This document shows positions 53,817 through 64,000 of a DNA stretch of 64,000 bases, in pieces (positions within the stretch are counted from its first letter, which is position 1; each line of letters begins with the position of its first letter). This stretch comes from Nitrosarchaeum sp. (GTDB taxonomy: Archaea > Thermoproteota > Nitrososphaeria > Nitrososphaerales > Nitrosopumilaceae): positions 62,001-126,000 of the forward strand of contig NZ_JAVYIM010000006.1 in the NCBI RefSeq assembly GCF_035968265.1. The letters are read 5' to 3'. Made by a program: the position numbers and the translations under genes. The notes beneath the pieces were generated by a model, which saw nothing but the letters and a program-made list of their open reading frames with translations, was not told the DNA's origin and made no database searches.

Positions 53817-54314
53817 ATGAGTAAACCAGGAAATATTTGGAGAAAAGTTCATGGTAAAATTACTAAAAAACCAACCAATTTCTCATGGTTAATTGAAAAT
53901 AAACTTGCAGGTTCAGGAATACCAACAAGTTTTGATGAGTTTGATTGGATTCTAAAACAAGGTGTTACATCAATTGTAACTATGACTGAAAATGCTTTAC
54001 CTGAAGAATGGGTAAGTAATATTGGTTATTTACATGTCCCAACTCCAGATCTTACAGCTCCTGACATGGATAGAATTGATACCGCAGTTGATTTTATCCA
54101 TAAAAAAATTTCAAAGGATCAAGCTGTAATGGTTCATTGTGCAGCTGGAATGGGAAGAGCTGGAACAATTCTAGCTTGTTATCTGATAAAGTATCAAAAT
54201 TATCCTGCAAAAGATGCAATTAAAAAAATTAGAACTGAACGACCAGGATCTATCCAATCCGAAGTACAGGAATTAGCTATTACCTTCTATGAAAAACATG
54301 TAGGAAGTAAATAG
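53817..54314 (+). CDS. Dual-specificity protein phosphatase
   Basis: A 165-aa cysteine phosphatase with the catalytic loop VHCAAGMGRAG (C-x5-R, near residue 104), the general-acid aspartate probably in PDLTAPDMD near 82, and the usual C-terminal IRTERPGSIQ segment. It removes phosphate from Tyr or Ser/Thr of proteins or from small molecules. Its stop is adjacent to the convergent small-protein gene at 54316-54462. Confidence 0.9.
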   Translation: MSKPGNIWRKVHGKITKKPTNFSWLIENKLAGSGIPTSFDEFDWILKQGVTSIVTMTENALPEEWVSNIGYLHVPTPDLTAPDMDRIDTAVDFIHKKISKDQAVMVHCAAGMGRAGTILACYLIKYQNYPAKDAIKKIRTERPGSIQSEVQELAITFYEKHVGSK

Positions 54315-54315
54315 A

Positions 54316-54462
54316 TCACATAAACTGTGATACTAGTTTTCCATCTACAATCTTTATCTTTAATATTTTATTTTCTTGAAATACAAGAGTAATTCCACCA
54401 TCTGAATCAGGATCTTCAACCTTTACCAATTCAATCATTTTAATTTGTTCGAATTTATCCAT
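54316..54462 (-). CDS. 48-aa protein, paralogue of the next gene
   Basis: A short frame of 48 codons starting at ATG 54462, with GGTGA six bases before it. The core VEDPDSDGGITLVFQENK and IVDGKLV matches the neighbouring 50-aa protein VEEPDKEGGITFIFKDNR...VVDGKI, so these are tandem paralogues. The pattern suggests a small beta-hairpin protein. I recognise no family. It is co-transcribed with its paralogue, ten bases downstream of it. Confidence 0.78.
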   Translation of the reverse strand: MDKFEQIKMIELVKVEDPDSDGGITLVFQENKILKIKIVDGKLVSQFM

Positions 54463-54472
54463 TCATTTTCAC

Positions 54473-54625
54473 CTATTCTGGAATTGATACGGCATCTATT
54501 TTTCCGTCCACGACTTTAATGAACAAAAATCTGTTATCTTTAAAGATAAATGTGATGCCTCCTTCTTTATCTGGTTCTTCAACTTCAAGTATTGGTTGTC
54601 CTAACAGACCATCGTATTTTGCCAT
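54473..54625 (-). CDS. 50-aa protein, paralogue of the previous gene
   Basis: A 50-aa frame from ATG 54625 to TAG 54473. The protein has the same layout as the 48-aa neighbour: a short N-terminal segment, VEEPDKEGGITFIFKDNR, a hydrophobic strand, and VVDGKID. An ATATAAG-like box lies about 25 bases upstream on the minus strand, which fits a leaderless first gene. The pair's conservation supports both as real genes. Confidence 0.78.
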   Translation of the reverse strand: MAKYDGLLGQPILEVEEPDKEGGITFIFKDNRFLFIKVVDGKIDAVSIPE

Positions 54626-54743
54626 AATAATTAACTCAAAAAGTTCCTTATATCCCTAATTGACCTATGTATTTATTTATGATAACTATTTTTTCAGGCA
54701 CAAATTAACCCAAATTATTACCTAAATTAACACTTGTCCATTT

Positions 54744-54941
54744 CTAGGTAGCAAATTTGAAAATATTTTTTGCTCTTTTTCGATCAATTGCTAAATATCC
54801 TCCAAGAATAAAGATTATTCCTCCACCTAAATAAGATGCAGAAGGATTAATTTTTAAACCAGATTCTATACCTGCACCAATCAACGCAAGAAATACTCCT
54901 CCGATCATAAAAGCAATCGGACCTACAGTTTCTATTTTCAT
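54744..54941 (-). CDS. Small two-helix membrane protein
   Basis: A 65-aa protein with two hydrophobic helices (about residues 8-26 and 36-52) and a basic C-terminal tail (DRKRAKNIFKF). I recognise no family. Its upstream region contains an unusual set of nested palindromes (54967-55017), which may control it. Confidence 0.72.
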   Translation of the reverse strand: MKIETVGPIAFMIGGVFLALIGAGIESGLKINPSASYLGGGIIFILGGYLAIDRKRAKNIFKFAT

Positions 54942-54966
54942 TGGATCCCTCTCACCATAGGATCCT

Positions 54967-54992
54967 AATGTAATGGATCGATCAATTACATT
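54967..54992. promoter_or_regulatory. Inverted repeat AATGTAAT-N10-ATTACATT
   Basis: Perfect 8-bp arms around a ten-base centre (GGATCGATCA), 26-51 bases upstream of the small membrane-protein gene. The half-site contains TGTAAT/ATTACA as in the two hsp20 promoter sites at 7767 and 7808, so the same regulator could bind. This link is inferred from the half-site alone. Confidence 0.55.
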
Positions 54993-55005
54993 TACTTTTT
55001 TGTTA

Positions 55006-55017
55006 GATCAATTGATC
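55006..55017. promoter_or_regulatory. 12-bp palindrome GATCAATTGATC
   Basis: A perfect 12-bp palindrome 14 bases beyond the inverted repeat at 54967-54992, in the 252-base gap between the membrane-protein gene and the gene at 55194. The rest of this gap shows nothing further that I can support apart from AT-rich promoter sequence. Confidence 0.45.
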
Positions 55018-55193
55018 CAATTTTCATTAAACCCTTACCAAAAATGTTGTAGCCGATTTATATTGTACAAAAAATATTCTAGATTATCTTGTAACTTCTG
55101 GTGGAAGTATAGGTCCAAGTAAAATAAACGAGAAAAATAAACGATATACTGCCTGATCGCTTTCCTTAAATCAAATAAAATCATATTATATCT

Positions 55194-55436
55194 ATGGTTC
55201 ATCCTGCTTGGTTTTTTGTAGGTGCTATTGCAGCAGCAGAAGTATACAGGAAATATGCTACAAATGAAGAAAAATTCAACTGGGAGAATTGGATAAAATT
55301 ACATCATGGTGAAATAGGTACAATATCAGCTATTTTGGGCATTGCTACTAAATCACCTCGATTAACAGCAGTAGGTCTTGGTCTTGCATTACATGATATT
55401 GATGATGCTCCAAAGTGGTTTTCAAGTACAAAATGA
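55194..55436 (+). CDS. Small protein, unknown function
   Basis: An 80-aa protein. The first ~20 residues are hydrophobic (HPAWFFVGAIAAAEVY), the middle contains WENWIKLHHGEIG, and a second moderately hydrophobic stretch includes GTISAILGIATKS and GLGLALHDIDD. It may be membrane-associated; the paired histidines and aspartates (HHGE, HDIDD) could bind metal. I cannot name a family. A CTTAAATC box about 27 bases upstream fits a leaderless ATG. Confidence 0.68.
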   Translation: MVHPAWFFVGAIAAAEVYRKYATNEEKFNWENWIKLHHGEIGTISAILGIATKSPRLTAVGLGLALHDIDDAPKWFSSTK

Positions 55437-55499
55437 ATCTCAAATTAAGCTACAAATAGAAAGTTCAAAATTTTAAAGCATACATGTTATATGCATAAT

Positions 55500-55518
55500 T
55501 CTCATACCCTGTATGAGA
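55500..55518 (+). terminator. Possible hairpin terminator
   Basis: TCTCATAC-CCT-GTATGAGA folds into a perfect 8-bp stem with a three-base loop and is followed by TATTTTTG. It lies 64 bases after the gene at 55194-55436 and 52 bases before the next gene. It could be a terminator; a protein-binding operator for the downstream gene is an alternative. Confidence 0.45.
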
Positions 55519-55569
55519 TATTTTTGAGTAATTTACAAAAAAAGCCCTTGAAGGAATTGAGGATTTTAA

Positions 55570-56832
55570 ATGATTAAACGAAACCCAAACATTACAATTT
55601 TTTCTGGAATCTCAGGCATTGATAAACGTGCTTTTATTAAAAATTTTATTAAAAAATCTGGCAAATCAAAAAATGTACTTGTTATAGATTTTGAAAAAGA
55701 GCTTCTTAACGAAAGTAGGAATCCACCAGTATCTGCTCCAGATATGCCAACTTTTCTTAATAGTGATGATCCCACTTTGAAATTACGTTCAATCGAAACT
55801 AATTACAGTTGGATAGCAAAACAAATGGATAAAAGATCTGAAAAAACTACAGATATATTTTTGAACATGCATTTATCATATTTTAAAAACAGTGAATTTT
55901 ATCCTCCGTTTATTCCATTATATTTTAAAGAAATTTTAACCAAATTCCCTGATTCTGAAATTAGAATAATTACTTTAATTGATGATGTTTTTGCTATTTG
56001 GAAAAAAATTAAAGATAGAGAATGTGATGGTTTTCTTAATACTCAACTTACTTTACGTGAAATTTTAGCTTGGCGTTCCTTAGAATCATTACATGCTGAA
56101 GCTCTAAAAGAACACATTAGTATTCTAGAAGAAGGTTCAAGACGTGTAAGTCATTTTGTTGTTTCAATAAGACATCCGTTTAATACTTTTAATAATTTAA
56201 TTTTTCAGGATAATCCTCAAAGAATCTATCTTTCTTATCCAATATCTTCTACTAGAAACGATCCTAAGGATATTCGAGATATTAATAATTTTAGAAAAAT
56301 AATGCATAAATTTGCTGAAAAACATGGAACAGCTATTTTTGATCCAGTTGCAATAGATGAATTAGCTATGAAAACAGCTCTTGATGAAGCAATTTCTAAA
56401 AATAAAATTAATACTCTAGTAACTTTAAAGAAAGACCATAGATGGTTTTTAGATCCTTTAGAACCACTAACAGATGATGTAAAATATCCTATAGTAATAC
56501 CTCGTACCCAAATCGAAGAAGCTCTCAAAGATATTAACAATCAAATAGCATCCAGAGACTATACTTTAGTTGATTCATCACTCTTCTTGGCAGTTTATAG
56601 ACCAGTCTACAAGGGACAGCTTTCTCGTGGGGTTGATGCAGAAATTAAACGTGCTAATAATCACATGAAGAAAGTCATCATGTATCATCCAGAAGAGGAT
56701 CAAAAATTAAGCCCAAAAGCCACATCTACACATCCTTTTGGTAATAAGGTTGATCAATTTGAGGTCAAAAAAGACTTCGTTGATTATATACTAAAAGTAA
56801 TCAAGCAGCAAAAGAAAAGAGATAAATCATAA
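55570..56832 (+). CDS. P-loop-like / deoxyribosyltransferase-like fusion protein
   Basis: A 420-aa protein with two regions. The N-terminal ~215 residues look like a P-loop kinase, with ITIFSGISGIDKRAFI; the Walker A is degenerate, having Asp for the last Gly and Arg for Ser/Thr. From about 218 there is a nucleoside 2-deoxyribosyltransferase-like domain: RIYLSYPISSTRND is its entry strand and SRGVDAEIKRANNHMKKV holds the likely catalytic Glu. I know no such fusion with an assigned role. It forms a two-gene unit with the YwgA/SocA-like gene 17 bases downstream, and may sense or modify nucleotides. Confidence 0.72.
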   Translation: MIKRNPNITIFSGISGIDKRAFIKNFIKKSGKSKNVLVIDFEKELLNESRNPPVSAPDMPTFLNSDDPTLKLRSIETNYSWIAKQMDKRSEKTTDIFLNMHLSYFKNSEFYPPFIPLYFKEILTKFPDSEIRIITLIDDVFAIWKKIKDRECDGFLNTQLTLREILAWRSLESLHAEALKEHISILEEGSRRVSHFVVSIRHPFNTFNNLIFQDNPQRIYLSYPISSTRNDPKDIRDINNFRKIMHKFAEKHGTAIFDPVAIDELAMKTALDEAISKNKINTLVTLKKDHRWFLDPLEPLTDDVKYPIVIPRTQIEEALKDINNQIASRDYTLVDSSLFLAVYRPVYKGQLSRGVDAEIKRANNHMKKVIMYHPEEDQKLSPKATSTHPFGNKVDQFEVKKDFVDYILKVIKQQKKRDKS

Positions 56833-56849
56833 GATCATAGATATTTGCC

Positions 56850-57332
56850 ATGATCTCAACTCAAAATACTTCTGTTCTTAAAATTCTCCGTAGTTTTGGT
56901 GAAATCAATTTAGATCATTTTGATGATCGTTTACGACTCCAAAAATTAGGTTATCTTGCACAAAATCTTGGTGCAAATGAAGAATTTCCATTTTCTTGGT
57001 ATGTTCATGGTCCATATTCTACTTCTTTAACCAGCATTCTTTTTGCAGGTGATGAAAATGGTTCATTTGATGATGATGTTGAACTTACTACTACAGAAAA
57101 ACATGTAGTTGAAAATTTAAAAAATTTATTAAAAGAAAACACTTGCAATCCTTCTATTTTAGAACTATATGCTTCAATTTGGTATTTAACTCCAAATAAG
57201 AAATTATCTGATTCTGATAAGAAACATGTTGTTGATTTAATGAGAAAAGAAAAACCACACTTTAGCCAATTACAAATTGAGAATGCTCTCAAAGAAATTA
57301 TTTCTTTTAGATCAAAACTAAATTATTCATAA
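56850..57332 (+). CDS. YwgA/SocA-like protein
   Basis: A 160-aa protein. The N-terminal half contains RLRLQKLGYLAQNLG and FSWYVHGPYSTSLTSIL, the pattern of YwgA and of the SocA/Panacea (DUF4065) antitoxin-like group: a leucine/lysine helix, then Trp-Tyr-x-His/Tyr-Gly-Pro-Tyr-Ser. The second half has KPHFSQLQIENALKEI, also as in YwgA. These proteins occur near phage and toxin genes as protective partners. It starts 17 bases after the fusion gene, so the pair is a transcription unit next to the integrase. Confidence 0.75.
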   Translation: MISTQNTSVLKILRSFGEINLDHFDDRLRLQKLGYLAQNLGANEEFPFSWYVHGPYSTSLTSILFAGDENGSFDDDVELTTTEKHVVENLKNLLKENTCNPSILELYASIWYLTPNKKLSDSDKKHVVDLMRKEKPHFSQLQIENALKEIISFRSKLNYS

Positions 57333-57407
57333 TAACTAACAAAATAAGGCAATTAACAATTTTGGTTTATAATACATGATTCATTCTGCACTTCAAATTT
57401 GAATTAT

Positions 57408-58355
57408 CTAATTCATTATCCTAAGGGTTGGTTCAACTTTCAAATATAGTTCTAATTTTTCAGAATCTTCCTTTCTGTCATACATGTCAAGATAGGTAGT
57501 ATGCCCTACCATTGCATGAGCAACATCTGTATCATGAATTCGTCTTGCACGAATAAAAAAATATGATCTAAAGGTATGAAGAGATATGTGATGTCTTCTT
57601 GTTGACTCGTATTTTGCTGTCAGTCCTGCCCTCTGTCTATATCTGGCAAAAGCCTCAATCTCAGTCATTGAGGCATGATATGGGATAGAATTTGTTGCAA
57701 ACGCTAGATCATTATCATTCAAAGTTTCAAGATATGGTCTAAGGAAATATTCTGCCTCTTTTGAAACAAATGTTGTATGTGCAGTTCTTGTTTTAGTAAA
57801 TTGAGCAGGAATTTCTATCTTGATTCTCTTTGGATAATCTAAATCAAAATCTTTTTTCCTTAGTGCCACCGTTTCTCTAATTCTCATGCCAGAACCAATC
57901 AAAACTAGATATAGCATCTGCCTAGGCATGGGTGTAAATTTGAATAGCTGAATAATTTCCTCTCGGGTTAATGGATGGAGTTTTTCTTTGAACTTTTTTG
58001 GGATTCTGACATTTTGTCTTAGCTCTATTGGATGTACTCTAATTCCATTATAGCTAAAATAATAAATTGCAATCTGGTAATATTTTTGAATTGTGGTATT
58101 TGCCAGTTTTGATTTTGCTAGACAATTAACAAAATCCTGCATCACTCCAATGAATGCCTCGTCTTTATCTTCAGACTTTAATGATTTTATCTCATCGACA
58201 ACATCTTGTATGCTTTTTTTATCATAGTTAGAATAACAAAATTTTTCAAACTGTTTGAGAGTAGCGATATAATTTGTTCTTGTAGAGTATTCTAAATTTT
58301 GTATTCCTTCTAAAAATGACTTTTTTGTTTTCTTTTTTAGAAGAAATGACGACAT
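57408..58355 (-). CDS. Tyrosine recombinase / integrase
   Basis: A 315-aa site-specific recombinase. The N-terminal SAM-like core-binding domain covers about 1-125. The catalytic domain has all key residues: Arg in GSGMRIRETVAL, Lys in TKTRTAH, His-x2-Arg in LHTFRSYF, Gly-His in MVGHTTYLDMY and the nucleophile Tyr in that last motif. It should therefore be active and marks an integrated element to its right. No tRNA gene or obvious attachment repeat lies within a few kilobases, so the attachment site is unknown. Its promoter has TTTGCTAA repeats. Confidence 0.93.
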   Translation of the reverse strand: MSSFLLKKKTKKSFLEGIQNLEYSTRTNYIATLKQFEKFCYSNYDKKSIQDVVDEIKSLKSEDKDEAFIGVMQDFVNCLAKSKLANTTIQKYYQIAIYYFSYNGIRVHPIELRQNVRIPKKFKEKLHPLTREEIIQLFKFTPMPRQMLYLVLIGSGMRIRETVALRKKDFDLDYPKRIKIEIPAQFTKTRTAHTTFVSKEAEYFLRPYLETLNDNDLAFATNSIPYHASMTEIEAFARYRQRAGLTAKYESTRRHHISLHTFRSYFFIRARRIHDTDVAHAMVGHTTYLDMYDRKEDSEKLELYLKVEPTLRIMN

Positions 58356-58392
58356 ATTTCATATTTACAAAAATTATTGATTATTTGATATG

Positions 58393-58427
58393 TTAGCAAA
58401 TTCCAGTTTTTTGCTAAATTTTGCTAA
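58393..58427. promoter_or_regulatory. TTTGCTAA repeats before the integrase gene
   Basis: TTAGCAAA at 58393-58400 faces two direct copies of TTTGCTAA at 58410-58417 and 58420-58427, which are exactly ten bases apart. The cluster is 38-72 bases upstream of the integrase start and in front of the divergent PIN-like gene. It could be an operator or the recombination arm sites of the integrase. Confidence 0.6.
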
Positions 58428-58469
58428 TATCTAAAATAATTTATCTATTTGATTACATATTGAAAATTT

Positions 58470-58766
58470 ATGTCAAGTAAGGTCATAATCGATGAAGACA
58501 TTCTAAAGGTCTCATCCAGACAAGAGCTGAAAGAAAAATTCCTTGAAGTTGTACCAGTTGGAAAAATCAAGGAATTACCTGCAGGCTCAAAAGATGAAAA
58601 GATTGGTGCATACTGCTATGAAAATGGCTATGATTTGATTACTGCAGACAAACGTGCATATGATAAATTTTTCAGGGATGCACGAATTAAATCTGTAATA
58701 ATTTCTAATTATGGAGTTTTCAAAGAAGGCAAAAGACTGATCTACAGAATACAAATAATCAACTAA
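58470..58766 (+). CDS. PIN-like (DUF5615-type) protein
   Basis: A 98-aa protein. The N-terminal VIIDEDIL and the central ENGYDLITADKRAYDKFF give the acidic-residue pattern of the PIN-like nuclease family found as toxins (Asp near 8 and 10, then ADK with Asp near 60). Length and layout match the short DUF5615 group. An RHH gene, the usual kind of antitoxin, lies about 700 bases away rather than adjacent. It is divergent from the integrase and shares its repeat-rich promoter. Toxicity is inferred from the family only. Confidence 0.72.
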   Translation: MSSKVIIDEDILKVSSRQELKEKFLEVVPVGKIKELPAGSKDEKIGAYCYENGYDLITADKRAYDKFFRDARIKSVIISNYGVFKEGKRLIYRIQIIN

Positions 58767-58788
58767 ATAATATTGCTTTTAACATCTT

Positions 58789-59436
58789 TCAAGATGATAT
58801 AACGGAAATTGATTTTTTATGTTTTTTAAGAATCTGTTTAAATAATTTTTCCTCCTTTTTCATCCATTCTATATCCTGAAAATTCTTTTCACTTACTTTT
58901 TTTAATAAATATGATTCATAATCATTCCTCATTTTAGGGCTTATTTTATTCATGATTTTTAAAGTCTGTCTAATGAGTAAATTTAATTTTTCTAATTCTT
59001 TTTTGTGTTTATTTTGTAAACTTGTAGGCATATCAATTAAATTTAATAAAATAGTTCTCTGTCTATGTGCTAACATAAACAAATCGATACGATTATGTAA
59101 CATTTGAATTGTATCTTCAAATTGACCGTCTCCATCCTCAAAAAATATTATTTGAAGATCTTGTTGTAAAACATTTTCATTTTCTAAAATTAATCTATCT
59201 AATTCCTCGTCTGCTCTAAAATTTAAAAATTCATCTTTTGTGGATTGATTAACGTGGTATTCAGTAATTTTACCATTATTTTTTTTGATAACAAATTCAT
59301 CCTCTACTAATTGTTTCAAATGTTTATTGAAACTAGCTCGTGTCATTTTACATTTATCATGTGTTGCAGATAGAATTTTTCCAAATCTGTGATTACCTCC
59401 TATAATTGATAGCATTATCGCATCATCAAAATCCAT
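58789..59436 (-). CDS. Winged-helix regulator of the integrated element
   Basis: A 215-aa protein. The first ~75 residues form a winged helix (CKMTRASFNKHLKQLVEDEFVIKKNNGKITEY); the rest is a long helical, Lys/Glu-rich effector or dimerisation region with a possible coiled coil. It does not fit a family that I can name precisely; MarR-like is nearest. Its start codon lies at the edge of a perfect 20-bp palindrome (59436-59455), which strongly suggests autorepression. It converges with the PIN-like gene. Confidence 0.78.
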   Translation of the reverse strand: MDFDDAIMLSIIGGNHRFGKILSATHDKCKMTRASFNKHLKQLVEDEFVIKKNNGKITEYHVNQSTKDEFLNFRADEELDRLILENENVLQQDLQIIFFEDGDGQFEDTIQMLHNRIDLFMLAHRQRTILLNLIDMPTSLQNKHKKELEKLNLLIRQTLKIMNKISPKMRNDYESYLLKKVSEKNFQDIEWMKKEEKLFKQILKKHKKSISVISS

Positions 59437-59455
59437 AGTCTAGTATACTAGACTA
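59436..59455. promoter_or_regulatory. 20-bp perfect palindrome (operator)
   Basis: TAGTCTAGTATACTAGACTA is its own reverse complement over all 20 bases. It overlaps the start codon of the winged-helix gene and lies 32 bases before the RHH gene start on the other strand. It is followed directly by another GACTA, so the half-site TAGACTA occurs twice in series. An operator for the adjacent regulator is the simplest reading. Confidence 0.75.
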
Positions 59456-59486
59456 GACTATTTATCTGAAATGTCTAATCTGTTGT

Positions 59487-59621
59487 ATGCAAAAAAGACA
59501 AACAGTAGGCATTTCATTTGATAATGAAATTCTGAATATTATTGATAAAAAGCGAGGATTCGTGCCTAGATCTAGGTTTGTTGAAGAAGTTATGAGAAAA
59601 CATTTGGAGGTTATGAAATGA
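59487..59621 (+). CDS. Ribbon-helix-helix protein
   Basis: A 44-aa gene. The protein reads MQKRQTVGISFDNEILNII, then KKRGFVPRSRFVEEVM, which is a ribbon-helix-helix fold of the Arc/CopG type, with a beta-strand near the start and the turn at the VPRSRF helix. RHH proteins control plasmid copy number or serve as antitoxins. It overlaps the next gene by ATGA and starts a chain of overlapping genes that leads to the P4-type helicase, so a replication-control role is likely. Confidence 0.82.
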   Translation: MQKRQTVGISFDNEILNIIDKKRGFVPRSRFVEEVMRKHLEVMK

Positions 59622-59827
59622 AAGAAATGAAACTAGGTGTAATATTTCCACATAATTTTAAAGGAAAATTTCTGATTGCAATAGAAGAAGGATGGAAAAA
59701 TTTCTTCACAACTGACCCAACATTTGAAGTTGTAATCGATAAAGATAGAAGATATACGCTGAGAGGTCCAATAGTACAGAACTCTCAACATGATCCAACT
59801 GTAGCACAGGAGGATACAGATGAGTAA
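59618..59827 (+). CDS. Small element-encoded protein, unknown function
   Basis: A 69-aa protein of no recognised family, with a hydrophobic N-terminal segment (LGVIFPHNFKGKFLIAI) and an acidic C-terminal end (TVAQEDTDE). GGAGG lies seven bases before its ATG, inside the RHH gene, and it overlaps both its neighbours (ATGA at the start; the next ATG lies eight bases before its end). This tight coupling marks it as part of the replication module. Confidence 0.75.
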   Translation: MKEMKLGVIFPHNFKGKFLIAIEEGWKNFFTTDPTFEVVIDKDRRYTLRGPIVQNSQHDPTVAQEDTDE

Positions 59828-60104
59828 TACAATTCAATCTAATAAAACCCATGTTAGAAAAGATTACAAATCTTGTAGCACAACATGTTCCATTTGTAAA
59901 AGAATTGGAAAACAAAAGAGTAAACAGTTCAATACACTTTATGCACTTAAGTATCATCTAACAACCTCTCATGATCGTCAAGATGAAATCATTGCAGGAG
60001 TTACAAGAAAACAAATTTTACAAATGATTAGAGCAATTTCACAAGCATTGGAGCTGAATATGCTTTTAGATATTCCAAAAGGAAAATATGATGGAAAAAA
60101 ATGA
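59820..60104 (+). CDS. C2H2-like zinc-finger protein
   Basis: A 94-aa protein with a zinc finger in its middle: C-x2-C in CSTTCSICKRIG (three Cys in total) and H-x4-H in LKYHLTTSHD. The C-terminal half is helical. A strong AGGAGG site lies six bases before the ATG. Such short fingers are typical of archaeal viruses and plasmids and may guide the helicase to its DNA or control transcription. It overlaps the helicase gene by 17 bases. Confidence 0.8.
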   Translation: MSNTIQSNKTHVRKDYKSCSTTCSICKRIGKQKSKQFNTLYALKYHLTTSHDRQDEIIAGVTRKQILQMIRAISQALELNMLLDIPKGKYDGKK

Positions 60105-61746
60105 ATACATCTGTAAAACCTGCAAGGCTGGTCCATGGAATGAATATGCAATAGGGAGTAATGGTCTCTATATTGTTAAAGCCCATAGAGATTTAGGTCA
60201 TGATATAATTGAATATCAAGAGTTTGAAGAAATAAAATTTGAACGTACAGTATGGGATGATGAAGATAGACAAATATTCAAACTTATGTCAAAATATGGC
60301 GATAAAGAATTATCATACCTAGATTATGCAAAAATAATTCAAGAAATATGCAAAATAAAAACCCTAGAAGACACTCAAGAGTGTCTATTTTATGAAAATG
60401 GAATCTACAACTCTAATGCAGAAATTAAGATCAAAAGATTACTCTTAAAACTAAATCCAGAATTAAAACTACATGAGATTACAGAAATAATCGGAAAAAT
60501 AAAGCAGATGTCAGGCATAAAAAGAGATGAATTTGACAATACCCATCATAAAATATGCCTAAAAAACTGCATTGTTGACGTAAAAACCAGGCAAACAGAA
60601 CCGCATGATCCAGAAAAATATTATCGCATACAAATTCCTGTCACATATGATCCAAAGGCAAAATGTCCCAAGTTTTCAAATTTTGTAAATACATGCATTA
60701 CATCTTCTGATGAGCGAATCATGTTGATAGAGCAAATGTCAACTCCATTACTTGGTAATCTTCCAAAACTTGAGGCAATGTACTTCAATGTTGGAGATGG
60801 TGATAATGGAAAATCTACATTCTTTGAGATGATTGGTTGGGTTTATGGTAGTAATAACATCAGTACTGTATCTTTTCATGATCTAGTTACTAACAGATTT
60901 GCTAAAGCAAGACTGGAGGGAAAGCTACTAAACATATTTCCTGACATTGGCAGTGATGCATTAGATAACCTAAATCCAATCAAACCTATAATTTCAGGTG
61001 ACCCAATTGATGCAGAATACAAGTATCAAAACCCACACACATTTGTAAACCGTGCAAAAATGTTCTTCTCTGCAAACGAGCTTCCCGAAATCAAAGAAAA
61101 AACTTTTGCTGACTTTAAGAGAATTAGAGTGATTAAATGGATACAGCGATTCTTAAAACCAAATGAATATTCAATAAAATTTCATGAATTAAAGGCAAAA
61201 CTTGGGGATGCTTTCACAGATTCAGATATTGAAAATGAACTTGCCTCATCTGGGATACATAAAATGAACAAGCAATTTGTAAAATCAATTATTGATAATG
61301 AAACAGAAAAATCTGGAATATTCAACTTGTTGTTAGTCTGTGCAAGCAAAATCATACAAAGAGATGGCTTCTTTATTGAAAGAAGTATAGATGACATACG
61401 TGAAGCATGGTCAAAGAACAGTACAGCGCTAGAATCTTTCATAAAAGATTGTTTGATAACTTGTGAGGGTGAGATCTCACGTCATGAGGCTTACTTTACT
61501 TATTATAATTATTGTAAGGCTCTAGGCAAGCCCGCATTGCCTAATAACTCATTTCAAAGAGAACTTCAAGCATTAATCCCATCACTTGATCCTGATGGAT
61601 GGAGAGGCAAAACCAGAGTTTACAGAGGAATTTCCTGGAATAAAAATAATGAAATTGTAAAAAGATATGTTTCCACCACATCTACCACAGATAAACAACA
61701 AAACCTTTCTCCCAAAAACTCAAAGATTGATGAGAAATATGAATAA
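60088..61746 (+). CDS. P4-family SF3 helicase/primase-like replication protein
   Basis: A 552-aa protein. An N-terminal zinc finger (CKTCKAGPWNEYAIGSNG...HRDLGH) is followed by a D5-N-like region and an SF3 helicase domain (about 225-380): Walker A GDGDNGKST near 236-244, Walker B LNIFPDIG near 288, and sensor MFFSANELPEI near 325. I see no primase (Prim-Pol) signature at the N-terminus, so the priming activity may be elsewhere. It is the likely replication protein of the integrated element. Two ATGs in a row (60088, 60091) follow AAGG. Confidence 0.9.
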   Translation: MMEKNEYICKTCKAGPWNEYAIGSNGLYIVKAHRDLGHDIIEYQEFEEIKFERTVWDDEDRQIFKLMSKYGDKELSYLDYAKIIQEICKIKTLEDTQECLFYENGIYNSNAEIKIKRLLLKLNPELKLHEITEIIGKIKQMSGIKRDEFDNTHHKICLKNCIVDVKTRQTEPHDPEKYYRIQIPVTYDPKAKCPKFSNFVNTCITSSDERIMLIEQMSTPLLGNLPKLEAMYFNVGDGDNGKSTFFEMIGWVYGSNNISTVSFHDLVTNRFAKARLEGKLLNIFPDIGSDALDNLNPIKPIISGDPIDAEYKYQNPHTFVNRAKMFFSANELPEIKEKTFADFKRIRVIKWIQRFLKPNEYSIKFHELKAKLGDAFTDSDIENELASSGIHKMNKQFVKSIIDNETEKSGIFNLLLVCASKIIQRDGFFIERSIDDIREAWSKNSTALESFIKDCLITCEGEISRHEAYFTYYNYCKALGKPALPNNSFQRELQALIPSLDPDGWRGKTRVYRGISWNKNNEIVKRYVSTTSTTDKQQNLSPKNSKIDEKYE

Positions 61747-61818
61747 TAATTTTTCAAAAATCCTGTGGTAAGTGTGGTAGATGTTTCTAAATAATACATT
61801 TCAACAAGGTGATCTGAA

Positions 61819-61995
61819 ATAAGCTGTAAGGGGATATGTGATAATCTAGAAAATGGTTACTCTGGTTATCCAAAATATGATTCTGGATACAGATACTGCC
61901 GTAATTGCAGATTTTCAATAAAATGTAATGATGTGCAGTGTCCATGTTGTAATAAAACACTTAGAAAAAAAGCAAGAAACAAAATTCATTCTTAA
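61819..61995 (+). CDS. Zinc-ribbon protein with an apparent ATA start codon
   Basis: A 58-codon frame whose protein, read from ATA as Met, begins MSCKGIC and has four Cys pairs or clusters: CKGIC, CRNC, C at 36 and CPCC, ending KKARNKIHS. It resembles small zinc-ribbon proteins common in this phylum that begin with Met-x-Cys-(K/R)-Gly-Ile-Cys. There is no ATG, GTG or TTG in frame before the first Cys, and a stop (TGA, 61810-61812) precedes. However, GGTGAT, a strong ribosome binding site, lies five bases upstream of the ATA. An inactive gene is the alternative. Confidence 0.65.
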   Translation: MSCKGICDNLENGYSGYPKYDSGYRYCRNCRFSIKCNDVQCPCCNKTLRKKARNKIHS

Positions 61996-62021
61996 TACCA
62001 TGAGAAAATTAAATTGGATTT

Positions 62022-62531
62022 ATGTCAGAGATAAAAATGTCAAAAACTCTTGCTGATAATAATAACAAAAAGTCTCAAAACCATAAAAATCACGAAGAAA
62101 AAATTACGGTTGAAAAATTAAGTATTTCTGCACGACGTAAACTTGTTCATTCTTTAGATCTTCAAGGATTCTCAAATCAAGAGATAGCAAAACAATTGAA
62201 TGTTAGTTTGTCTACTATTGAAAAAGATCTTAATGAAATGAAACAAAATATCAGAGAATGGTTTTCTCAATTAGGTTCTGAAGAAAGATACCTTGCATTT
62301 ATTGATGCAGTAATTCACATTGATCTTTCAACAAAACAACTATGGAAAATGGCAAGAGAAGAAAAGGATCAAAAAGAAAAAATTAAACTTTTAGATCAAA
62401 TTACCAATAATGCTGTAAAAAAAGCAGGACTCTTTAAAACTTCAGAGGCATATCTTACTACATATTATTTTAAACAAAAAGATACTTCACCAAGAGAAAT
62501 AGCACGAGAAGAATTACGAGACATGCTATGA
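62022..62531 (+). CDS. HTH protein, possible terminase-small-subunit or regulator type
   Basis: A 169-aa basic protein. A helix-turn-helix lies at about residues 38-70 (LVHSLDLQGFSNQEIAKQLNVSLSTIEKDL), of the type seen in sigma-70 region 4, LuxR and terminase small subunits. A helical C-terminal region follows with many Lys and Glu. No large terminase is in the window, so a regulator is at least as likely. It is located between the zinc-ribbon gene and hsdR in the integrated region. Confidence 0.72.
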   Translation: MSEIKMSKTLADNNNKKSQNHKNHEEKITVEKLSISARRKLVHSLDLQGFSNQEIAKQLNVSLSTIEKDLNEMKQNIREWFSQLGSEERYLAFIDAVIHIDLSTKQLWKMAREEKDQKEKIKLLDQITNNAVKKAGLFKTSEAYLTTYYFKQKDTSPREIAREELRDML

Positions 62532-62665
62532 TTTTAGATTCTATTTTTCCGCATAAATTTTCACTAAAAATGAATAATTTCTTACAATGTTAAAAAATTA
62601 TGAACTTGATAGTATAATCTTCAATAAATGATCTTATTTTTAGACTAGTCATATACATCTGATTT

Positions 62666-64000
62666 GTGGGAAAACCAGGACCTGACTCAAACGAAGGAAG
62701 AGCACGAATAATTGATAAACTGCTTGAAGAGGCAGGTTGGGAAATCATCAGAGAAGGAGACCATATTCCAGACAAAGGAAATTACGCAGTTGAGGAATTT
62801 CAGACAGACTCTGGTCCAATGGATTATGCGTTAATCATTGACGGTAAAGTCTTGGGTGATGTTGAGGCAAAGCCCGAAACAACTGGAGTTCCATCTGTTT
62901 TACAACAAAATGAACGATATTCAAAAGGTTACACTAAAGGAAAATTAGAATATGATGGAGGATACCACATACCGTTTCTTTATGCATCAAATGGAAATAT
63001 AATTTGGTATAGAGATGCACGAACAAAAAGAAACATTCAGCGAGAAATAGAACAATTCCATACACCAGAAGCAATACTGGAATTTCTTGAAAGAGATGTA
63101 GAGAAATCATATCAATGGCTACAAGAAAACCCAATAGAAATTTCAGGAATCAGGGAATATCAAAAAGATGCAATAGAAAGTGTCGAACATGCAATAATGG
63201 ACAACAAAAGAAAATTACTTTTGGCAATGGCAACAGGAACTGGTAAAACGTTTACTGCTGCTGAAATGATTTATAGGCTATTAAAATCAAAGACTGCAAA
63301 AAGAATTTTGTTTCTTGTCGACAGACGAGTTTTAGCTGCACAAGCAGTAAGAGAGTTTGCAGCATTTGAGCCAGAGCCAGGACAAAAATTGGACAAACTA
63401 TATGAGGTGTATTCTCAAAGATTCAGAAAAGAAGACATTGGAGATGAAGACTTTGATCCCAGAGTTTTACCAAATGAATATCTGACAGATCCAAAATCAA
63501 ATCATACTTTTATTTATGTGTCTACTATTCAACGAATGCAGATCAATCTCTTTGGAGGATATGGAATAATTCCTGGAAGAGGCGACGAAGACATTGAAGA
63601 TGATGCAGACAAACTAGACATTCCTATTCATGCCTTTGATGTAGTAATTGCAGACGAGTGTCATCGTGGATACACATCATCTGAAGAATCAAAATGGCGT
63701 GATGTGTTGGATCATTTTGACGCAATCAAAATTGGCTTGACTGCAACTCCTGCCAAACACACTACAGCATACTTCAAAAATGTCGTTTATCACTATCCTG
63801 TAGAAAGGGCAGTCTTAGATGGCTATCTGGTTGATTGGGCTCTAGTCAAGATAGAATCAGGCATACGCATGAACGGTACATTCCTAAAAGAAGGTGAGGC
63901 TGTAGAGTTTATCGATACTGAGACTGGAAAAACAAAGTATGATGAATTAGAAGATGAGCGTGAAATCACAACCACACAGCTGGAAAAACAGGCTACAGTT
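62666..64000 (+). CDS. hsdR: Type I restriction enzyme HsdR subunit, 5' part
   Basis: A frame that is open to the window end, with 445 codons visible of a protein usually near 800-1000 aa. The N-terminal nuclease domain has the PD-(D/E)xK pattern (Asp in GPMDYALI, then ExK in GDVEAKPE near 67-69). The SF2 translocase has Walker A MATGTGKT near 188, DECHRG near 330 and TATPAK near 358. An in-frame TGA at 62660-62662 forces a start at GTG 62666, with a CTTATTTTTAG box about 28 bases upstream. The hsdM and hsdS genes must lie to the right. Confidence 0.9.
   Translation, partial: MGKPGPDSNEGRARIIDKLLEEAGWEIIREGDHIPDKGNYAVEEFQTDSGPMDYALIIDGKVLGDVEAKPETTGVPSVLQQNERYSKGYTKGKLEYDGGYHIPFLYASNGNIIWYRDARTKRNIQREIEQFHTPEAILEFLERDVEKSYQWLQENPIEISGIREYQKDAIESVEHAIMDNKRKLLLAMATGTGKTFTAAEMIYRLLKSKTAKRILFLVDRRVLAAQAVREFAAFEPEPGQKLDKLYEVYSQRFRKEDIGDEDFDPRVLPNEYLTDPKSNHTFIYVSTIQRMQINLFGGYGIIPGRGDEDIEDDADKLDIPIHAFDVVIADECHRGYTSSEESKWRDVLDHFDAIKIGLTATPAKHTTAYFKNVVYHYPVERAVLDGYLVDWALVKIESGIRMNGTFLKEGEAVEFIDTETGKTKYDELEDEREITTTQLEKQATV

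What the first reader, a model, noticed from the sequence alone, without database searches (positions are those of the whole stretch)
55570..57332. Two-gene unit: P-loop/deoxyribosyltransferase-like fusion with a YwgA/SocA-like partner
A 420-aa protein with a degenerate P-loop region and a C-terminal nucleoside-deoxyribosyltransferase-like domain is followed, 17 bases later, by a protein with the WY-x-HGPYS pattern of YwgA/SocA-type proteins. They sit directly beside an integrase. Nucleotide-acting enzymes paired with SocA/Panacea-like proteins would fit a toxin-antitoxin or anti-phage system. I know no described system with this pair. The function is inferred.
Basis: inference. Interest (0 to 1): 0.7.

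Follow-up and report, generated by a model that had tools for sequence, protein, structure and literature searches.

The report
Archaeal toxin-antitoxin-like pair on mobile element
An ammonia-oxidising archaeon carries, on a 14.7-kb mobile DNA element, two neighbouring genes that look like a poison-and-antidote pair: an enzyme predicted to break nucleotides apart, adapted from an ordinary archaeal protein family, and a small partner shaped like the part of a known bacterial antidote (DarG) that grips its poison.

Summary
P1 (55570-56832, 420 aa) is an archaeal adenylate-kinase-like domain with a degenerate P-loop, fused to a DNPH1/nucleoside-deoxyribosyltransferase-like (NDT-like) domain with an intact predicted active site (Tyr220, Asp330, Ser352, Glu358). 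P2 (56850-57332) starts 17 bp later. Its model matches one solved fold, the toxin-binding C-terminal domain of the antitoxin DarG (PDB 7yk3, probability 1.00). It is not the Panacea domain PF13274.

The pair recurs, P1 then P2, in five Nitrosopumilaceae-type genomes (one P1 broken). Close P1 and close P2 never occur apart in 400 class genomes, and their trees agree. It is mobile: seven same-genus relatives carry the exact empty site of a 14.7-kb element that also holds integrases, a P4-type primase and a type I restriction-modification system. P2 relatives form operons with ParE/RelE, PIN-like, wHTH and another NDT-like gene, as a promiscuous antitoxin would. Without P2, the P1 family is a core-type gene in many Thermoproteota, so the mobile version looks like a housekeeping enzyme recruited as a toxin.

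Most likely it is a toxin-antitoxin or abortive-infection module: a nucleotide or NAD+ N-glycosidase held by a DarG-C-like antitoxin. Toxicity, substrate and binding are inferred.

The parts
55570..56832 (+). P1, putative toxin/effector, 420 aa: archaeal adenylate-kinase-like N-terminal domain (about residues 1-190, degenerate P-loop) fused to a DNPH1/NDT-like C-terminal domain (about residues 214-400)
   Evidence: A3 profile hits archaeal adenylate kinases in the PDB, 1ki9 3e-10; AF2 pLDDT 85.7, pTM 0.87; Foldseek archaeal AKs probability 1.00; PF05014 hits in 14 of 19 relatives; Tyr220 and Asp330 in 27/27 and Glu358 in 26/27 homologues, the exception being a frame-broken copy
55606..55629 (+). 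degenerate Walker A of P1 (G13-I-S-G-I-D-K-R20)
   Evidence: K19 is present here but L, R or M in 17 of 25 homologues, and the Ser/Thr position is not kept
56227..56229 (+). P1 Tyr220, counterpart of human DNPH1 Tyr24
   Evidence: invariant 27/27; role of Tyr24 from PMC10483697
56557..56559 (+). P1 Asp330, counterpart of DNPH1 Asp80
   Evidence: invariant 27/27; profile alignment to DNPH1
56623..56643 (+). P1 S352-x-G354-x3-E358, counterpart of DNPH1 Ser98-Gly100-Glu104 (phosphate contacts and nucleophile), same spacing
   Evidence: S 25/27, G 26/27, E 26/27
56850..57332 (+). P2, putative antitoxin, 160 aa, stand-alone DarG C-terminal-like domain
   Evidence: DarG models hit: PADLOC PDLC02990 3.1e-8, NCBIfam NF048014 4.6e-5 over 57 residues; AF2 pLDDT 92.8; only confident fold match is 7yk3 chains B and D, probability 1.00, TM 0.61-0.63
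54651..54663 (.). left attachment repeat TATCCCTAATTGA; the mobile element runs from 54664 to about 69352 in window coordinates (beyond the window end), where TAACCCTAATTGA follows
   Evidence: empty site in 7 same-genus genomes, the flanks sharing 13 bp
57408..58355 (-). tyrosine recombinase/integrase inside the element
   Evidence: PF00589 38.7 bits, phrog_1 3.8e-18
60088..61746 (+). P4-type primase/helicase of the element
   Evidence: TIGR01613 1.4e-41, phrog_864 4.5e-62
62666..64000 (+). start of the type I restriction-modification operon (HsdR-like, then HsdM- and HsdS-like beyond the window, then a second integrase at the right end of the element)
   Evidence: ORFs in L179/L240; helicase, methyltransferase and integrase families

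Best explanation
P1-P2 is a mobile toxin-antitoxin-like (possibly abortive-infection) module. P1 is the toxic enzyme: its NDT/DNPH1-like domain breaks the N-glycosidic bond of a free nucleotide, either a (deoxy)nucleoside monophosphate or NAD+. Its adenylate-kinase-like domain, with a degenerate P-loop, binds a nucleotide for sensing or oligomerisation rather than acting as a kinase. P2 is the antitoxin: a stand-alone DarG-C-like domain that binds P1 and keeps it inactive. Loss of P2, or an infection signal that frees P1, would drain nucleotides or NAD+ and stop growth. Shown here: domain identity, predicted active site, co-conservation, mobility and the partner habits of the P2 family. Inferred: toxicity, substrate, P1-P2 binding and the trigger.
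For: (1) Linkage: the P1-P2 order is kept in the window, G274, G300, G244 and G039 (P1 broken), with 1-25 bp gaps in the four other loci. In 400 class genomes the five P2 hits below 1e-70 lie in exactly the genomes with paired-type P1; the next P2 hit is 5e-28. (2) Co-evolution: paired P1s form a clade (100/100) and so do paired P2s (97/94), with L080 and L083 as sisters in both trees. (3) P2 model: the only confident PDB fold match is DarG-C in the DarTG complex 7yk3, probability 1.00, all others at most 0.13. (4) P2 relatives sit in operons with at least five other partner families: ParE/RelE over the Pfam cut-off (L038, L162), PIN-like (five loci), wHTH, small proteins with membrane proteins, and an NDT-like protein (L034). 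(5) P1 keeps Tyr/Asp/Ser-x-Gly-x3-Glu as in DNPH1. (6) Mobility: exact 14.7-kb insertion with an empty site in 7 relatives, carrying integrases, primase and type I RM; P1 is absent from the 17 other genomes of the genus; G274 has VirB4/TrbL-type genes and G244 a recombinase beside the pair. (7) Precedent: the Retron-Eco1 effector is NDT-like (PMC12887533), and NDT domains were predicted as Abi toxins (PMC3710099).
Against: P1 relatives without P2 are common, core-type genes in other Thermoproteota (about 60 of 398 genomes at E <= 1e-42; conserved RNase P-component/DedA-type neighbourhood in f19). They are probably not toxic there, which leaves a metabolic role for P1 open. One f1 genome has a second P1 without P2 (L031). 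The NDT-like call for P1 itself rests on relatives and active-site residues: P1 alone has no Pfam hit, and the fold match of the C-terminal domain was not displayed separately. Neighbouring defence genes other than restriction-modification were not surveyed systematically.
Confidence: 0.66

Rival explanations
1. Metabolic cargo: P1 is a nucleotide-pool sanitation or salvage enzyme (DNPH1-like) and P2 a regulatory or stabilising subunit; the pair rides on mobile elements because it helps the host or the element's replication.
For: P1 relatives are core-type, mostly single genes in many Thermoproteota; the active site resembles the housekeeping enzyme DNPH1.
Against: Core relatives never had P2 beside them in the loci read; the P2 family sits with ParE/RelE and PIN-like toxins; the pair is sporadic (5 of 400) and on a mobile element with RM.
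Confidence: 0.17
2. DNA-targeting toxin: P1 removes bases from DNA (as NDT-type Abi domains were proposed to do) and P2 blocks the nucleic-acid site, as DarG-C does for DarT.
For: DarG-C blocks DarT by ssDNA mimicry (Deep et al. 2023, cited in PMC12170906); NDT domains were proposed to act on DNA (PMC3710099).
Against: P1 keeps the DNPH1 phosphate-contact residues Ser352 and Gly354, and its other domain is a mononucleotide-binding (adenylate-kinase) fold; both fit small nucleotides better.
Confidence: 0.1
3. A PanAT system: P2 is a Panacea (PF13274) antitoxin.
Against: No PF13274 match in this genome; profile-profile comparison with Panacea proteins from related genomes gives 0.9% probability.
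Confidence: 0.04
4. Chance neighbours with no joint function.
For: None beyond the existence of unpaired P1 and P2 relatives.
Against: Same order and 1-25 bp gaps in four diverged loci, perfect co-occurrence of the close forms, matching trees.
Confidence: 0.03

Closest known systems
DarTG (DarT toxin / DarG antitoxin)
   Same: P2 has the fold and a weak sequence match of the DarG C-terminal toxin-binding domain; the enzyme gene is followed by the antitoxin gene.
   Different: No macrodomain on P2; P1 is not an ADP-ribosyltransferase but an adenylate-kinase-like/NDT-like fusion.
Retron-Eco1 (NDT-like, NAD+-hydrolysing effector)
   Same: NDT-like enzymatic domain as a proposed toxic effector.
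   Different: No reverse transcriptase seen in the element; no sequence match to solved retron effectors; control by a DarG-C-like protein instead of RT-msDNA.
PanAT (Panacea) toxin-antitoxin systems
   Same: An antitoxin family whose members sit beside many unrelated toxins.
   Different: P2 is not PF13274 by HMM or profile comparison.
AbiJ-NTD1/NDT fusions predicted as abortive-infection proteins (PMC3710099)
   Same: NDT domain in a predicted conflict protein.
   Different: No AbiJ N-terminal domain; two-gene arrangement with P2.
DNPH1 / CMP N-glycosidase MilB / nucleoside 2-deoxyribosyltransferase
   Same: Catalytic Tyr, Asp, Glu and phosphate-contact Ser-x-Gly conserved in the C-terminal domain.
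   Different: Fused to an adenylate-kinase-like domain and paired with P2.
Archaeal adenylate kinase (AdkA)
   Same: Fold of the N-terminal domain.
   Different: Degenerate Walker A; fused to an NDT-like domain.

Membership tests
DarTG | DarG C-terminal toxin-binding domain | tested here: met
   Foldseek 7yk3 probability 1.00, TM 0.61-0.63; DarG models 3.1e-8 and 4.6e-5 over one segment
DarTG | Macrodomain (or NADAR) in the antitoxin | tested here: not met
   P2 is 160 aa; only DarG positions 164-226 are matched, no macrodomain hit
DarTG | DarT ADP-ribosyltransferase partner | tested here: not met
   P1 has no DarT/ART match; AK-like plus NDT-like
PanAT | Panacea domain PF13274 in the antitoxin | tested here: not met
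   no match in own genome; hhalign probability 0.9%
Nucleoside 2-deoxyribosyltransferase/DNPH1 superfamily | Catalytic Tyr, Asp, Glu | tested here: met
   Tyr220 and Asp330 27/27, Glu358 26/27; aligned with DNPH1 and MilB
Nucleoside 2-deoxyribosyltransferase/DNPH1 superfamily | Family HMM match of the protein itself | tested here: inconclusive
   P1 alone: none; 14 of 19 relatives hit PF05014, best 2.9e-5; PDB profile hits weak, E 0.09-1
Archaeal adenylate kinase | AK fold | tested here: met
Archaeal adenylate kinase | Functional Walker A GxxGxGK[ST] | tested here: not met
   GISGIDKR here; Lys and Ser/Thr not conserved in the family
Retron | Reverse transcriptase and ncRNA next to the NDT-like effector | tested here: not met
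   no RT among the element's ORFs by reading the ORF list and family hits; ncRNA not tested
Type II toxin-antitoxin module | Tightly linked, co-conserved two-gene operon | tested here: met
Type II toxin-antitoxin module | Toxin inhibits growth; antitoxin binds and neutralises it | not testable with these tools
   needs expression and binding assays; no joint structure prediction was possible

The most novel reading that the evidence does not exclude
A core archaeal nucleotide enzyme (adenylate-kinase-like plus NDT-like fusion) has been turned into a mobile toxin whose degenerate kinase domain senses nucleotide changes during virus infection. It is held by a member of a previously unnamed, promiscuous family of stand-alone DarG-C antitoxins that in archaea plays the part Panacea plays in bacteria.
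Probability: 0.35. Interest if true: 0.75.

Novelty: new variant of a known kind. Interest (0 to 1): 0.6.

Why it matters
Few toxin-antitoxin or anti-virus systems are described in ammonia-oxidising archaea. This pair would add an NDT-type nucleotide-cleaving enzyme controlled by a DarG-C-like antitoxin, show how a housekeeping enzyme becomes a toxin, and suggest that the DarG toxin-binding domain is a general antitoxin module whose partners (ParE/RelE, PIN-like, NDT-like) can be found by neighbourhood search.

Tried and rejected
Viral collections: IMG/VR scans with A1, A2, A4 and A6 gave no P1 and only one remote P2-like protein (L206). Phage and plasmid tblastn gave nothing for P1, P2 or the bacterial P1, so these sources do not show the pair as viral. 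Weak P1 hits in G062 and G074 (L003/L004) overlap a FAD-dependent reductase ORF and were dropped as spurious. Weak hits such as Inhibitor_I66, aden_deam and Cac1_C were dismissed as below cut-off. Foldseek against viral proteins returned mainly kinases and other P-loop proteins. Most of the 220 of 398 hits of the A3 phylum search weaker than about 1e-13 match only the N-terminal domain in ORFs of about 200 aa, i.e. true adenylate kinases, and were not counted as P1 relatives. Direct repeats inside 54300-62000 gave no attachment site; comparison with relatives did.

Full report
1. What is there. The genome is 1.5 Mb; its nearest named pair-bearing relatives are Nitrosopumilus/Thaumarchaeota MAGs, so it is read as an ammonia-oxidising archaeon of class Nitrososphaeria (class by inference).

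2. P1. Alone it has no significant family hit. With 18 relatives (A3) the profile matches archaeal adenylate kinases in the PDB (1ki9, 3e-10, positions 3-142), and the AF2 model (pLDDT 85.7, pTM 0.87) matches archaeal adenylate kinases with Foldseek probability 1.00. The Walker A is degenerate: GISGIDKR in P1, and the lysine is R, L or M in most relatives. The C-terminal half is NDT-like: PF05014 is hit in 14 of 19 relatives (best 2.9e-5). A C-terminal profile aligns weakly to CMP N-glycosidase and DNPH1 (E 0.09-0.5), with the active-site residues in register. In 27 homologues Tyr220 and Asp330 are invariant, and Ser352, Gly354 and Glu358 are kept in 25, 26 and 26. These correspond to DNPH1 Tyr24, Asp80, Ser98, Gly100 and Glu104, of which Glu104 is the proposed nucleophile and Ser98/Gly100 contact the 5'-phosphate (PMC10483697). 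The inference is an intact N-glycosidase site suited to a nucleotide.

3. P2. It matches DarG over one segment (PADLOC 3.1e-8; NCBIfam 4.6e-5), and 18 of 19 members of its alignment hit the DarG model. Its AF2 model (pLDDT 92.8) has a single confident PDB match, chains B and D of 7yk3, the DarTG complex of M. tuberculosis (probability 1.00, TM 0.61-0.63; next best 0.13). It is not Panacea: no PF13274 in this genome, and profile comparison with true Panacea proteins of related genomes gives 0.9%.

4. The pair is real. P1-P2 recurs in G274 (Nitrosopumilus sp. 21_July_SF_Bin12), G300 (Nitrosopumilus sp. H13), G244 (Thaumarchaeota RHO2_bin_25; P1 cut by the contig end) and G039 (P1 truncated, with an internal stop). 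In 400 class genomes, close P2 (E < 1e-70) occurs only in those genomes and the window's own, which are also the ones with paired-type P1. Paired P1s and paired P2s are each monophyletic, with the same sister pair L080-L083.

5. It is mobile. All seven same-genus relatives compared at the DNA level have an empty site: the left flank ends at window 54663 and the right flank resumes at 69353 (outside the window), sharing 13 bp (TATCCCTAATTGA; right copy TAACCCTAATTGA). The 14.7-kb element carries the pair, two tyrosine integrases, a P4-type primase and a type I RM operon, like the cryptic integrated elements of Thaumarchaeota (PMC6563490). In G274 the pair lies among VirB4/TrbL-type genes, and in G244 beside a recombinase (assignments by reading the sequence, the recombinase also phrog_1 9e-4). 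P1 was absent from the 17 other genomes of the genus.

6. P2 relatives behave like antitoxins. Among some 40 loci, adjacent same-strand partners cluster into PIN-like proteins (5 loci; PIN over the Pfam cut-off in a further, convergent neighbour in L176), a RelB-like gene followed by ParE/RelE (L038, L162; over cut-off), wHTH proteins (3), small proteins with membrane proteins, and P1 (4). In L034 a P2 relative precedes a small NDT-like protein (PF05014, E 0.015, below cut-off); it falls outside the P1-paired clade, hinting at a second, independent pairing.

7. P1 outside the pair. About 60 of 398 phylum genomes have a strong P1 relative (E <= 1e-42), repeatedly within the same families (for example f29, f33, f45, f50), without P2 in the loci read, and in f19 with a conserved neighbourhood (RNase P-type and DedA-type genes, by reading). 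This is the strongest argument that the ancestral function is not toxic. Two Proteobacteria MAGs carry P1 relatives preceded by a conserved small ORF of about 105 aa instead of P2.

8. Mechanism. Best reading (0.66): P1 cleaves a free nucleotide or NAD+ and P2 holds it inactive, as DarG-C holds DarT (Deep et al. 2023, cited in PMC12170906). NDT-like effectors have precedent in Retron-Eco1 (PMC12887533) and were predicted in Abi proteins (PMC3710099). Shown: domains, predicted active site, linkage, mobility, partner habits. Inferred: toxicity, binding, substrate, trigger.

9. Novelty. Neither DarTG (no macrodomain, no DarT), nor PanAT (no PF13274), nor a retron (no RT seen). I found no report of this pair in the library searched. 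It is a new variant of a known kind: a toxin-antitoxin-like module with a new enzyme and a new pairing.

Noticed in passing
window 54664-64000 (continues to about 69352): Complete 14.7-kb integrative element with a 13-bp imperfect direct repeat; empty in seven same-genus genomes. It carries two integrases, a P4-type primase and type I RM.
   Followed up: yes
window 58470-58766: Small protein with a DUF5615 match just under the curated cut-off (23.3 vs 23.8 bits), inside the same element; DUF5615 is PIN-like, from general knowledge.
   Followed up: no
L204:5287-6819 and L205:2575-4333: P1-like proteins in two Proteobacteria MAGs, each preceded by a conserved ORF of about 105 aa (the L205 one has no Pfam match), possibly an alternative antitoxin; the L204 copy is frame-broken.
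   Followed up: partly
L042, L043, L044, L045, L046: Repeated module in g11 genomes (G045 and G060, up to 9 P2-like copies): a P2-like protein, a 91-aa protein (fused in some) and a small membrane protein; a candidate toxin-antitoxin family.
   Followed up: partly
L166, L167, L169, L173, L177: P2-like gene followed by a PIN-like gene with gaps of -32 to +12 bp; the PIN call is mostly by eye (L177 weak Pfam hit).
   Followed up: partly
L034:4976-6082: P2-like protein with an N-terminal extension, followed 24 bp later by a small NDT-like protein; a possible independent NDT/DarG-C pairing.
   Followed up: partly
L206:5932-9032: Remote P2-like gene in an IMG/VR contig next to an 849-aa protein that looks like a nuclease-NTPase fusion.
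   Followed up: no
L088, L089, L090, L095, L087: P2-free P1 in a conserved neighbourhood with RNase P-component-like and DedA-like genes, suggesting a housekeeping role of unknown nature.
   Followed up: partly
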